Shown here: positions 51,279 to 54,736 of the stretch, one piece after another
How positions within the stretch are numbered: the first letter of the stretch is position 1
Layout of the letters: every line of letters starts with the position of its first letter
From: Myxococcales bacterium
GTDB lineage: Bacteria; Myxococcota; Polyangia; Nannocystales; Nannocystaceae
Direction: 5' to 3'
Assembly: GCA_016793465.1 (NCBI GenBank)
Contig: JAEUJW010000075.1
Location: 310,001-374,000, forward strand
Length of the DNA: 64,000 nt
The notes under the pieces: model-generated
Told to the model about the DNA's origin: nothing
What the model saw: only the letters and a program-made list of their open reading frames with translations
Database searches by the model: none
Translations under genes and position numbers: made by a program

Positions 51279-54182
51279 TCACTCGAACACCAGCACGCTG
51301 GCCGCCCACGTCGCCCCCGCGCCGAGCCGCACGCGTTCGTCGCGCACGGCCGCCGCCGGCGAGGCGCCGTCGCGCACGCGCCCGCGCACCGCCGCGAAGA
51401 ACGGCCCCGCCTGGCGGTCCTGCACCGGCGCCGGCGAGGCGATCACCGCCCGCGCCCCCGCCTCGATGAACGCGACCGGCAAGCTCCACGCCTCGTGCAG
51501 GTACGGCGCCACCTGCCCCGCGTGACAGGCCCCGAGGATCACCAGCGGCTGCGCCCGCAGCGTCTGCCCGCGGATCTGCCCGGCCGTCAGCGCGTGCCGC
51601 CCGTCGGCCCCCGGCGTGAGCGCGAGGAACGACGCGTCCGACACCCCGAGGTCGACCAGCCCGTGCACGTGGAACTCGATCTCCGCGGCCCCCGGCATGG
51701 CCGCCAGCACCCGCGCGGGGTTCGCCTCCGGACCCGCCAGCAGCGTCGCCCGCGGCCCCTCGTCCGCCGCCTGCCACGGGGCCAGCCGGGGCAGCCCGAG
51801 CGCCGCCGGCGGCTGCGCGTCGGCAATTATTAGCCGTCCGCCCGCCACGGCCGGCCCGCGCGCGCGCGTGTGCCCCACGTGGTACGACCACGCGAACTCC
51901 GGCGGCAGCAGATCGGTGCGCCCCGCGACCGGCGGGCGGGCGAACACCGCCACCTCCGGGCACGCCCGCAGCGCATCGACCATCTCTCCCGGCACCTGCA
52001 GCGCCGCATCGACCGCGCTCCGCGTCAGCGCCCCCGAGGCCGCGCCGTCGGCCGCCAGCGCCGCAACATAACTGCGCTCGTGATCGACGACCACGCCCAG
52101 CGCGCAGCGCTCCGGCGCCGCCTCGCCGACCTCCTCCGCCAGCCGGGCCAGCGCCGCCGCGTGCTCGCCGCGCCCCGCCGCCGCCAGCGCCAGCGACGCG
52201 TAGCTGAACGACAGCGCCTTCAACGCGTACGGGTCGCTGCGATCGATCTCCCGCGCCGCCGCGATCGAGCGCATCAACAACGCCTCACCCGCCGCAGCCT
52301 CCGTCTCGACCCGCACGCGCCCCTCGATGTGATCCGCCAGCGCCGCCTCGCCCGGCGACAGCGTCCCCGCGCGCACGACCGCCAGCCCGTCCAGCGCCGC
52401 GCGAGCGTCGGCCGGATCGCCGCCGAGGCGCGCCAGGTCGGCCTGCACGAACAGTCGCATCAGCGACGGCGGCGGCGCGCACCCCGGCGTGCCCTTCAAC
52501 GCCAGACGAGCCCCGTCGACGTCGAGCCCGACGATCGCCAGCGCCGCCAGCACGTCGCGCCCGTAGCGCTCCGCCGTGCAGCGCGTCGCCGGGTCCGCCG
52601 GCAGCCGCAGCAGCGTCTCTTCAGTGATGGCCCGCGCCAGCCCGAAGCTCCCGCGCAGCCGCGCCTGCTCCCCCCGCAATTGTAAGAACGTGCCCTCGAA
52701 GCCCCAGTGCCGGTCCGTCTGCACCCGCTGCGACCCCGCGGCCAGCAGCGGCGCCGCCTCGCTCGGTCGGTGCATCAACAAGTACAGCTCCGCCAGCGCC
52801 AGCTCGACGCGCGCGCAGCGGTAGTCGAGCCCCGGCCCGCACGTCGGCCGCGCCGCCAGCAGCGTCGCCTCCGCCTCCGCGTACGCCCCGCGCGCGACCT
52901 GCTGCGCCGCCAGCTGCTGCGCCGCCAGCTGCGTCATCCACGGGTCGTTGGCCGCCGCCGTCAACTCGCCCAACAATTCGAGATCCGCCGCCACCCCCGG
53001 CTGCACCAGCGCGCCGATCGCAATGTCCTCCTGCCCGGCCGCCGCCGCCCGCCTCGCCAGCGCCGCGCCGTCGCCCTGCCCCTGCAGCAGCGCCGCGTAC
53101 TCGCCGGCCAGCGGCCCGCGCCGCTCGAACCTCGCCGCCGCCACCTCCTCGACCAACCCCTGCAGCACGCGCCCGCCGGCCCGCGCGTCGAGCTTCTCGG
53201 CCAGAATTTTTAAAGCCTCGACCTGCCGCTTCGACCCCGCGACCCGCAGCGCGTCATAAAAATACAGGCGCACCAGCCCCGGCGCCGCGTCCACCAGTTC
53301 GTCCGCGATCGCCGCGCCCGCGCGCAGCGCCGCCCCGGCCGCCTGCACCTCGGCGAACACCCGCTCGCGCGCGTCGACCGGCCCGCGCAGCGCCGCCGCG
53401 TCGGCCGCCGCCTCCGCCGCCCAGCCCGCGGCGCCGACCTCCGCCACCCGCTCGAACTCCCCCGCCGCCAGCCGCGGCAGGCCCAGCTCGCGCAGCGCCA
53501 GCGCCCGGTTCCAGCGCGCCTGCGCGTGCCCCGGCTCGGCCTTCAGCGCCGCGTCGGCGAAGCCCAGCGCCGCCTCGGCGTCGCCGTCGAACAGCGCCAG
53601 CGCGGCCCGGTCGTTGTCGCGGTCGGCCGACGGCGGCGTCCGCTCGAGCACCGCCCGCGCCTGCGCCGACTCCCCGCGCAGCAGGTGCGCCGCCGCCAGC
53701 CCGCGCAGGTCCCCCGCCGCCTCGAGCCCCGCCATCTCGGCCAGCGCGATCGCCTCCGCGTTGCCCCCCGCCGCCCGCACCACCGCGTACTCGCGGTGCA
53801 CGTCGGCCTGCGCCCAGCTCACCCGCGCCTCGAGCCCGCGCGTCGCCGCCAGCGCGACCCTCACCTCGGCCTCGCCGCCCTCGTCGCCTTCACCTGTCCC
53901 TTCAGACCTGTCCCCAGGGCCAGGCAAACCGATCGCGATCGCCGCCGCCGCCGCGACCGCCAGCAGCGGCGCCGCGACCCTCCAGGCCGCCCGCCGCGGC
54001 CGCAGCGGGACCACCGCGCCCGCCTGCGCGACCGGCATGGTCGCCGCCGTCATCTGCAGCAGGTCGTGGAGCCCGCGCTGACACTCCGCGCAGCCGACCA
54101 GGTGCCGCTCGAAGGCCGCGCGCTCGCCCGGCGGGAGCTCGCCGTCGAAGAACAGGTCGAGGTTGTCGCAGGGCGGGTTCAT
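51279..54182 (-). CDS. Anti-sigma-type zinc finger protein fused to TPR and CHAT protease
   Basis: 967 residues. N-terminal zinc finger of the anti-sigma type (His27-x3-Cys31-x2-Cys34), a membrane helix at about 69-86 (VAAPLLAVAAAAAIAIG), a long Ala/Leu TPR-like region, and a C-terminal CHAT caspase-like domain with catalytic His838/His840 (EFHVHGLVD) and Cys886 (VILGACHAG). By topology the TPR-CHAT part would be outside the cytoplasm. The gene overlaps the ECF sigma gene (ATGA), so the zinc finger most likely holds that sigma factor and the CHAT domain may control its release. A 34-nt palindromic element encoding GPGDRSEGTG lies directly after the membrane helix. Confidence 0.85.
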   Translation of the reverse strand: MNPPCDNLDLFFDGELPPGERAAFERHLVGCAECQRGLHDLLQMTAATMPVAQAGAVVPLRPRRAAWRVAAPLLAVAAAAAIAIGLPGPGDRSEGTGEGDEGGEAEVRVALAATRGLEARVSWAQADVHREYAVVRAAGGNAEAIALAEMAGLEAAGDLRGLAAAHLLRGESAQARAVLERTPPSADRDNDRAALALFDGDAEAALGFADAALKAEPGHAQARWNRALALRELGLPRLAAGEFERVAEVGAAGWAAEAAADAAALRGPVDARERVFAEVQAAGAALRAGAAIADELVDAAPGLVRLYFYDALRVAGSKRQVEALKILAEKLDARAGGRVLQGLVEEVAAARFERRGPLAGEYAALLQGQGDGAALARRAAAAGQEDIAIGALVQPGVAADLELLGELTAAANDPWMTQLAAQQLAAQQVARGAYAEAEATLLAARPTCGPGLDYRCARVELALAELYLLMHRPSEAAPLLAAGSQRVQTDRHWGFEGTFLQLRGEQARLRGSFGLARAITEETLLRLPADPATRCTAERYGRDVLAALAIVGLDVDGARLALKGTPGCAPPPSLMRLFVQADLARLGGDPADARAALDGLAVVRAGTLSPGEAALADHIEGRVRVETEAAAGEALLMRSIAAAREIDRSDPYALKALSFSYASLALAAAGRGEHAAALARLAEEVGEAAPERCALGVVVDHERSYVAALAADGAASGALTRSAVDAALQVPGEMVDALRACPEVAVFARPPVAGRTDLLPPEFAWSYHVGHTRARGPAVAGGRLIIADAQPPAALGLPRLAPWQAADEGPRATLLAGPEANPARVLAAMPGAAEIEFHVHGLVDLGVSDASFLALTPGADGRHALTAGQIRGQTLRAQPLVILGACHAGQVAPYLHEAWSLPVAFIEAGARAVIASPAPVQDRQAGPFFAAVRGRVRDGASPAAAVRDERVRLGAGATWAASVLVFE
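53891..53924. repeat. Composite palindromic element inside the CHAT gene
   Basis: Bases 53894-53919 match 27322-27347 in the sigma54 activator gene at 24 of 26 positions in the same orientation and coding phase, giving GDRSEGT in both proteins. A CCTG/CAGG dyad closes around TCCCCAGGGC. Confidence 0.7.
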
Positions 54183-54736
54183 GGGTGGCTCTCGTCGGCG
54201 CCGCGCGCCGGCATCAACAGGTCACGCAGCTTGCGTCGCGCCCGCGCGAGGCGGGTGCCGACCGTCGCCTTGGGGATGCCGAGGCGCGTCGAGATCTCCT
54301 GGTACGGCACGCCCTCGAGCGTGTGCAACTCGTAGACCCGGCGAAAGTCGGGCTCGAGCCGCGCCACCGCGGCGACCACGTCGTCGCGGGTGAGCCGCGT
54401 CCACGCCGGCTCGCGCGTCGGCTCGGGCGCCGGCACGACCACGTCGTCGATCGGCGCGTGCGCCGGCCTGCGGCTGCGGGCCCGACAGCGGTCGAGGAAC
54501 AGGTGATGCAAGATCGTGCACAGCCACGCCTGCAGGTTGGTGCCGAGCTCGTACTGCTCGCGCCGCCGCAGCGCCCGCTCGTAGGTGTCCTGCACGAGGT
54601 CACCGGCGTCGGCCCGGCTCCCGCACAGGCGCACCGCCAGCCCGCGCAGCACCGCCTCGTGCTCGCGCAGGCGACGAGCGAAGTCCGCGGCCGCGTCGAC
54701 CGGCACCACCGCGTCGTTGACGGACATTGGCGGCAT
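54179..54736 (-). CDS. ECF-type RNA polymerase sigma factor
   Basis: 185 residues: region 2 (DAGDLVQDTYERALRRREQYELG, NLQAWLCTILHHLFLDRCRARSRR) and region 4 (RLEPDFRRVYELHTLEGVPYQEISTRLGIPKATVGTRLARARRKLRDLL). The stop overlaps the start of the zinc finger-TPR-CHAT gene, so the two are translationally coupled and form a sigma/anti-sigma pair. ATG at 54736 chosen; ATG at 54727 is possible. Confidence 0.92.
   Translation of the reverse strand: MPPMSVNDAVVPVDAAADFARRLREHEAVLRGLAVRLCGSRADAGDLVQDTYERALRRREQYELGTNLQAWLCTILHHLFLDRCRARSRRPAHAPIDDVVVPAPEPTREPAWTRLTRDDVVAAVARLEPDFRRVYELHTLEGVPYQEISTRLGIPKATVGTRLARARRKLRDLLMPARGADESHP

What the first reader, a model, noticed from the sequence alone, without database searches (positions are those of the whole stretch)
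51279..54736. ECF sigma factor coupled to a zinc finger-TM-TPR-CHAT protease
Seen: sigma gene overlapping (ATGA) a 967-residue protein with anti-sigma zinc finger, membrane helix, TPR-like region and intact CHAT dyad (His838/840, Cys886). Known: CHAT proteases in type III-E CRISPR (TPR-CHAT) cut a protein that holds an ECF-type sigma, and caspase-like domains work by activated cleavage. Inference: here sensor, protease and anti-sigma are one chain, so signal binding could trigger self-cleavage or cleavage of a partner and free the sigma. Predicted topology puts the CHAT domain outside the cytoplasm, unusual for this family.
Basis: partly seen in the sequence, partly recalled or inferred. Interest (0 to 1): 0.7.

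Follow-up and report, generated by a model that had tools for sequence, protein, structure and literature searches.

The report
DdvA-type membrane anti-sigma with caspase-like domain
This is a two-gene myxobacterial switch, a transcription factor held at the membrane by a large sensor protein with a caspase-like outer domain, and it belongs to the already described DdvS/DdvA kind, though to a branch not seen next to phage-defence genes.

Summary

What this work adds: the window groups with Nannocystis (100/100), apart from a five-locus branch holding DdvA's closest matches. In that branch three loci carry SAVED-CHAT and cyclase genes downstream and a fourth a SAVED-CHAT-like gene; all five have lost His838 and one cysteine pair kept in the window. 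I saw no convincing defence gene among 10 flanking window genes. The seven cysteines outside the zinc domain are 95-100% conserved. A small protein (orf200) precedes the pair in the window and in 5 of 5 Nannocystis loci.

Most likely mechanism: periplasmic sensing, CHAT self-cleavage, intramembrane proteolysis, sigma release. Only architecture, conservation and linkage are shown.

The parts
54179..54736 (-). ECF sigma factor, 185 aa (sigma region 2 and region 4)
   Evidence: upstream of the anti-sigma gene; a sigma gene lies within 700 bases upstream on the same strand in 25 of 32 related loci
51279..54182 (-). DdvA-type transmembrane TPR-CHAT anti-sigma factor, 967 aa
54078..54167 (-). zinc anti-sigma domain, residues 6-35 (CHCC ligand set C5, H27, C31, C34)
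   Evidence: Pfam zf-HC2 E 1.7e-8; matches 8rlz 'Antisigma factor DdvA'; H27 and C31 in 41 of 46 rows, C34 in 42, C5 in 30 (8 more have His there)
53922..53978 (-). predicted transmembrane helix, residues 69-87
   Evidence: Kyte-Doolittle 2.18, Arg-rich on the zinc-finger side; AF2 helix 67-83 at low confidence
53823..53840 (-). ordered stretch after the disordered linker, residues 115-120 RGLEAR; R115 and R120 invariant; candidate self-cleavage or docking segment (inference)
   Evidence: both Arg in 44 of 44 full-length rows; pLDDT 91 and 93 for blocks 111-120 and 121-130
52113..53762 (-). TPR-like helical repeat region, residues about 141-690
   Evidence: AF2 model pLDDT mostly over 90; aligned to DdvA. 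No Pfam TPR match to the window protein itself
51324..51752 (-). CHAT caspase-like domain, residues 811-953, with H840 (51663-51665) and C886 (51525-51527)
   Evidence: dyad 44 of 44
54777..55379 (-). orf200: conserved hypothetical with a hydrophobic N-terminus (by eye), 40 nt upstream of the sigma gene; candidate third gene of the operon
   Evidence: same place in 5 of 5 Nannocystis loci; 17 homologues, the four with an organism name all Nannocystis; no Pfam family above its cut-off
54751..54780 (-). promoter-like element TTGACC-N14-TGGCATCGTC just upstream of the sigma gene
   Evidence: present in the window and 5 of 5 Nannocystis loci, spacer 14 or 15

Best explanation
The pair is a Nannocystaceae-like member of the DdvS/DdvA kind. 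Shown by sequence and predicted fold: an N-terminal CHCC zinc domain, one candidate membrane helix and a large TPR-CHAT domain with the DdvA fold and an invariant His-Cys pair. Inferred from DdvA and from anti-sigma factors in general: the zinc domain binds and silences the ECF sigma; the TPR-CHAT domain lies in the periplasm and probably dimerises. A periplasmic signal then makes the CHAT domains cut the juxtamembrane part in trans. A site-2 protease of the RseP kind finishes the job, and the sigma is released. The regulon is unknown in this branch and need not be antiviral.
Against: No cleavage, binding or transcription was measured. From memory of the 2024 Science Advances abstract (text not held), DdvA's His-Cys site is 'incomplete', so CHAT activity is unproven even there. 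A conserved dyad can also be structural. No coordinates were available, so dyad geometry and cysteine distances in the model were not measured. Seven of 32 related loci show no sigma gene within 700 bases upstream.
Confidence: 0.62

Rival explanations
1. The CHAT domain is a non-cutting sensor. Ligand binding or dimer rearrangement exposes the linker to another site-1 protease, then to a site-2 protease, and the sigma is freed.
For: DdvA and its nearest relatives lack H838 and one cysteine pair yet the relatives remain paired with a sigma gene. The linker 83-103 is predicted disordered and so open to any protease.
Against: H840 and C886 are invariant in 44 of 44, also in the five loci that lost H838.
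Confidence: 0.27
2. The CHAT domain cuts another periplasmic protein rather than itself, for example the product of the neighbouring orf200, and that product or the cut sets the state of the anti-sigma.
For: orf200 sits 40 nt upstream in the window and at the same place in 5 of 5 Nannocystis loci and has a hydrophobic N-terminus.
Against: No orf200 relative outside Nannocystis-like sequences was found among named ones, while the TPR-CHAT anti-sigma is wider; two orf200 relatives seem to lie on contigs other than those of the pair. The orf200 model is poor (pLDDT 56.5).
Confidence: 0.08
3. The pair controls an antiphage island, as DdvS/DdvA does in M. xanthus.
For: Family membership. Loci L011, L022 and L023 carry SAVED-CHAT and cyclase genes downstream, after two other genes. 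The ABC ATPase gene 56872-57579 matches the PADLOC model mad3 at 1.6e-30, which I take for a general ABC-ATPase likeness.
Against: The window and Nannocystis form another branch (100/100). No convincing defence gene among 10 flanking window genes. No Cmr2 match in 5 of 5 Nannocystis genomes.
Confidence: 0.12

Closest known systems
DdvA / DdvS of Myxococcus xanthus (PDB 8rot, 8rw5, 8rlz; Bernal-Bernal et al. 2018 and 2024, titles seen)
   Different: About 36% identity. The window keeps H838 and the C535/C568 pair; in 8rot H838 aligns to Ala, C535 falls in a gap and C568 aligns to Thr (alignment, read by eye). Different branch. Different neighbours, with no CBASS or cas genes seen beside it.
Csx29 TPR-CHAT protease of type III-E CRISPR (Craspase) with Csx30 and CASP-sigma
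   Different: Csx29 is RNA-activated through Cas7-11 and cuts a separate protein, Csx30; that it is cytoplasmic is recalled. Here anti-sigma and CHAT are one membrane chain, and no cas gene was seen among the 10 flanking ORFs scanned.
Separase
   Different: Eukaryotic and not an anti-sigma factor (recalled).
RseA / RsiW type anti-sigma factors
   Same: Anti-sigma whose proteolysis frees an ECF sigma (PMC10028731 passages).
   Different: They have small outer domains and rely on separate site-1 proteases (recalled).

Membership tests
DdvA-type transmembrane TPR-CHAT anti-sigma family (broad) | N-terminal CHCC zinc anti-sigma domain | tested here: met
   zf-HC2 E 1.7e-8; match to 8rlz E 7.6e-7; C5, H27, C31, C34
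DdvA-type transmembrane TPR-CHAT anti-sigma family (broad) | Single membrane helix, zinc domain inside | tested here: met
   by prediction only: hydrophobicity and charge
DdvA-type transmembrane TPR-CHAT anti-sigma family (broad) | TPR-CHAT outer domain with the DdvA fold | tested here: met
DdvA-type transmembrane TPR-CHAT anti-sigma family (broad) | His and Cys at the CHAT dyad positions | tested here: met
   H840, C886; 44 of 44 rows
DdvA-type transmembrane TPR-CHAT anti-sigma family (broad) | Adjacent cognate ECF sigma gene | tested here: met
   ATGA overlap; 25 of 32 related loci have one within 700 bases upstream
DdvA-type transmembrane TPR-CHAT anti-sigma family (broad) | Zinc domain binds and inhibits the sigma | not testable with these tools
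   needs a binding or reporter assay
Defence-linked DdvA clade (narrow) | Groups with the CBASS-associated relatives in a tree | tested here: not met
   window with Nannocystis 100/100; L008, L011, L012, L022, L023 form another starred group; 13 of 28 rows, the five of this group among them, have an unlike letter make-up, which the model assumes absent
Defence-linked DdvA clade (narrow) | CBASS or type III CRISPR genes beside the pair | tested here: not met
   10 flanking ORFs by Pfam; 8 of those 10 plus the sigma and the anti-sigma by PADLOC: the ABC ATPase matched mad3 (1.6e-30), mad8 and AriA and the FtsX permease matched CARF_LolE_TM, which I judge general likeness; ORF 61363-62139 and the rest of the window were not scanned
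Type III-E CRISPR Craspase (Csx29) | Encoded with Cas7-11, Csx30 and CASP-sigma | tested here: inconclusive
   no cas gene among the 10 flanking ORFs scanned; the whole genome of the window is not held
Active CHAT cysteine protease | Proteolytic activity | not testable with these tools
   needs an enzyme assay

The most novel reading that the evidence does not exclude
The known defence-linked DdvA is a derived offshoot with a degraded active-site surround. The wider family, including this one, is a self-cleaving periplasmic caspase-like anti-sigma that answers an envelope signal unrelated to phages, in Nannocystaceae with a third, unrecognised secreted partner (orf200).
Probability: 0.3. Interest if true: 0.55.

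Novelty: new member of a known kind. Interest (0 to 1): 0.33.

Why it matters
The architecture and the sigma-control logic are published for M. xanthus, so the finding itself is not a discovery. Its value is comparative. It belongs to a branch in which the catalytic neighbourhood (H838) and all six outer-domain cysteines are intact and no defence island was seen beside it. That makes it a good test of whether CHAT self-cleavage is the ancestral trigger of DdvA-type proteins, and of whether phage defence is an acquired use of the switch.

Tried and rejected
A regulon search by promoter motif gave little. The exact pattern TTGACC-N13/16-GGCATCGTC occurs 6 times in 5 Nannocystis genomes: once before each sigma gene, plus one further site in one genome (reversed-pattern control 0). 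With fixed spacing and up to 3 mismatches there were 171-223 sites per genome against 50-64 in the reversed control. That control ignores codon use, and only part of the list was shown, so I draw no regulon from it. One extra site near a GTG start is shared by two Nannocystis genomes (L042, L040). The gene has a match in 4 of 5 genomes, but my script found the upstream region in only 2 of these 4, the same two, so this stays a lead.

I first took the element for an ECF autoregulatory promoter (CGTC box). It fits a primary-sigma type with extended -10 equally well (TTGACC, 17 or 18 bases, CATCGT, preceded by TGG), so its type is left open. In one search I looked at 22 loci: the two Nannocystis loci given (L001, L003) have the exact core GGCATCGTC at -23; 5 of the 20 others (L022, L023, L025, L027, L030) have a one-mismatch core somewhere within 400 bases upstream, at five different positions, so the element is not shared with distant loci.

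The structure of orf200 was tried and is too poor to use. Rfam at gathering thresholds and the tRNA scan of the window were empty. A plasmid search with the sigma found only matches under 60% identity. Paper searches: DdvA and DdvS by name, CHAT with anti-sigma and ECF (one paper, Craspase), with Myxococcus, zinc and CRISPR, the 2024 title words, and Nannocystis with anti-sigma and CHAT (three papers with two of the terms, none with all three). The library lacks most subscription papers, so this does not show that nothing is in print on the Nannocystis pair. Considered and rejected: chance open frames; membership of type III-E CRISPR; an accidental fusion (the chain aligns to DdvA end to end).

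Full report
OBSERVATION. The two ORFs are real and placed as stated: sigma 54179-54736 and 967-residue partner 51279-54182, both on the minus strand, overlapping ATGA. Codon-position G+C supports coding. Pfam finds CHAT (1.4e-14, residues 811-953) and a zinc finger (1.7e-8, residues 6-35) in the partner, no TPR family, and sigma regions 2 and 4 in the small protein.

LITERATURE. [quoted passage not shown] PMC4374960, a research paper of which I saw passages, says DdvS becomes active when DdvA is inactivated and that the signal is unknown. The two primary papers are not held. From memory, not from a call: the 2024 abstract describes periplasmic TPR-CHAT dimers with an incomplete His-Cys site, possible autoproteolysis in trans, RseP-mediated release and a CHCC zinc bundle that traps DdvS.

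FAMILY. A search of 5.8 billion proteins gave 45 relatives (only the 7983 candidates sharing most words were scored): the nearest at 95% (no name), named Nannocystis proteins at 60-63%. In 44 full-length rows, the window included, H840 and C886 are invariant. H838 is His in 42 of 44. The ten cysteines of the window protein are C5, C31 and C34 (zinc), C448, C456, C535, C568, C693 and C741 (outer domain) and C886. C448, C456, C693, C741 and C886 are Cys in 44 of 44, C535 in 43 and C568 in 42. The zinc ligands vary more: H27 and C31 in 41 of 46 rows, C34 in 42, C5 in 30 with His in 8. I infer three disulfides outside the cytoplasm; distances were not measured. The pairing of C535 with C568 rests on their joint loss in one row of the protein set (P0029; another row, P0018, lost only C568) and in the five loci below.

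TOPOLOGY. The candidate membrane window is more hydrophobic than any window after residue 150 in 44 of 46 rows and has more Arg/Lys before than after it in 44 of 46. Cytoplasmic zinc finger and periplasmic CHAT follow, the layout of DdvA.

SURVEY. One scan of species genomes, which used a single conserved peptide pattern, gave 33 loci, titled as myxobacteria, deltaproteobacteria or, once, a proteobacterium. Leaving out L033 (75 matched residues), an ECF sigma gene lies within 700 bases upstream on the same strand in 25 of 32. The seven without are L009, L017, L019, L021, L025, L028 and L032; L009 and L028 begin near contig ends, and L025 has a sigma gene about 750 bases upstream. In a tree of 28 rows (27 loci and the window) the window groups with four Nannocystis rows (100/100). 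A separate starred group (100/100) holds L008, L011, L012, L022 and L023. A warning goes with the tree: 13 of 28 rows, these five among them, have an unlike letter make-up. The group label that I gave was not tested by the program. DdvA (8rot) scores highest against this group among the five rows I compared: L012 574 bits, L022 566, L023 455, against 432 for L005 and 383 for the window; L008 and L011 were not compared. In all five loci H838 is V or I, and C535 and C568 are both lost. In 8rot H838 aligns to Ala, C535 to a gap and C568 to Thr (read by eye). Of the other 23 tree rows 22 keep H838; L013 has Asp.

DEFENCE LINK. L011, L022 and L023 carry a SAVED-CHAT gene and a cyclase gene downstream, after two other genes; L011 and L022 have one cyclase type, L023 another with E1-E2. 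L008 has a weaker SAVED-CHAT match (2.8e-32) on the other strand upstream. Four proteins of L012 given to Pfam or PADLOC gave no defence match. A tblastn with the L022 and L008 genes found no SAVED-CHAT or cyclase relatives in the other loci or the window; other defence types were not sought in all loci. Cmr2 (TIGR02577) was found in 3 of 24 genomes searched, those holding L005, L012 and L023, and in none of the 5 Nannocystis genomes (in the control the model was over its cut-off in 1 of 14 known genomes and rang in 4). By record titles L008 shares its genome with L005, and L022 with L012. So 3 of the 4 genomes where this clade was found have Cmr2 and none of the other 20 do. Kinship is not corrected for, the survey may have missed clade members (L029, a Corallococcus fragment, was too short to place), and the cas genes were not shown to lie beside the pairs. 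In the window, 10 ORFs flanking the pair (of 47 picked; 61363-62139 in the same stretch was left out) were scanned with Pfam: GntR-aminotransferase, EamA, DUF2330, trypsin with FG-GAP, orf200 (no family), FtsX permease, ABC ATPase, IgGFc-binding, SDF, and one without a family. PADLOC on 10 window proteins (8 of these, the sigma and the anti-sigma) matched only the ABC ATPase (mad3 1.6e-30, mad8, AriA) and the FtsX permease (CARF_LolE_TM, 1.8e-10), which I read as general likeness. The window's own genome is not held, so distant targets cannot be excluded.

NEIGHBOURS. orf200 lies 40 bases upstream of the sigma gene and has relatives at the same place in 5 of 5 Nannocystis loci. Seventeen relatives were found, and the four with an organism name are Nannocystis. 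Two of these (P0066, P0067, 163 aa) lie on contigs whose lengths differ from those of the pair's loci, so paralogues away from the pair probably exist. Between orf200 and the sigma gene lies TTGACC-N14/15-TGGCATCGTC in the window and 5 of 5 Nannocystis loci: a promoter-like element whose sigma type is not settled.

MECHANISM. Shown: architecture, fold by prediction, conservation, gene linkage. Inferred: sigma binding, periplasmic sensing, dimerisation, self-cleavage at or near the ordered segment after the linker (R115-x-x-E-x-R120, both Arg 44 of 44), site-2 proteolysis, sigma release. The strict conservation of H840 and C886 favours an active enzyme over a pure sensor, but does not prove it.

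VERDICT. A sound observation of a known kind: a Nannocystaceae-like member of the DdvS/DdvA family, on a branch not seen linked to phage defence.

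Noticed in passing
54777-55379 (-): orf200, a small protein with hydrophobic N-terminus and no Pfam family above cut-off; named relatives are all Nannocystis; it precedes the sigma gene in the window and the five Nannocystis loci, and shorter relatives seem to exist elsewhere in Nannocystis.
   Followed up: partly
49080-51158 (-): Downstream on the same strand: a trypsin-family protease with FG-GAP repeats, likely secreted and likely starting at an internal Met (by eye); no tblastn match to it in the related loci.
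   Followed up: partly
54751-54780 (-): Promoter-like element conserved in the window and 5 of 5 Nannocystis genomes; either ECF-type or primary-sigma type with extended -10.
   Followed up: partly
L001:12954-13880, L002, L003, L004, L010: A UbiA prenyltransferase gene follows the anti-sigma gene in 5 of 5 Nannocystis loci, with no tblastn match in the window.
   Followed up: partly
L022:12945-15079, L008:13035-15515, L011, L023: Two genes, one without a family and one with a weak Peptidase_C25 match in L022 and L008, follow the anti-sigma gene in all four loci with SAVED-CHAT genes; possibly part of the defence switch.
   Followed up: partly
L032:8091-10634, also L009 and L028: Shorter Corallococcus relatives (847-849 aa as read) show no zinc finger motif; L032, which has about 8 kb of upstream sequence, also lacks a sigma gene within 700 bases upstream.
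   Followed up: partly
L010:10001-12933: The anti-sigma gene of this Nannocystis pusilla record matches in two different frames, which may be a sequencing error or a broken gene.
   Followed up: no
L042:1500 and L040:1500: A second site resembling the sigma-gene promoter element lies just before the start of a membrane-like gene in two Nannocystis genomes.
   Followed up: partly
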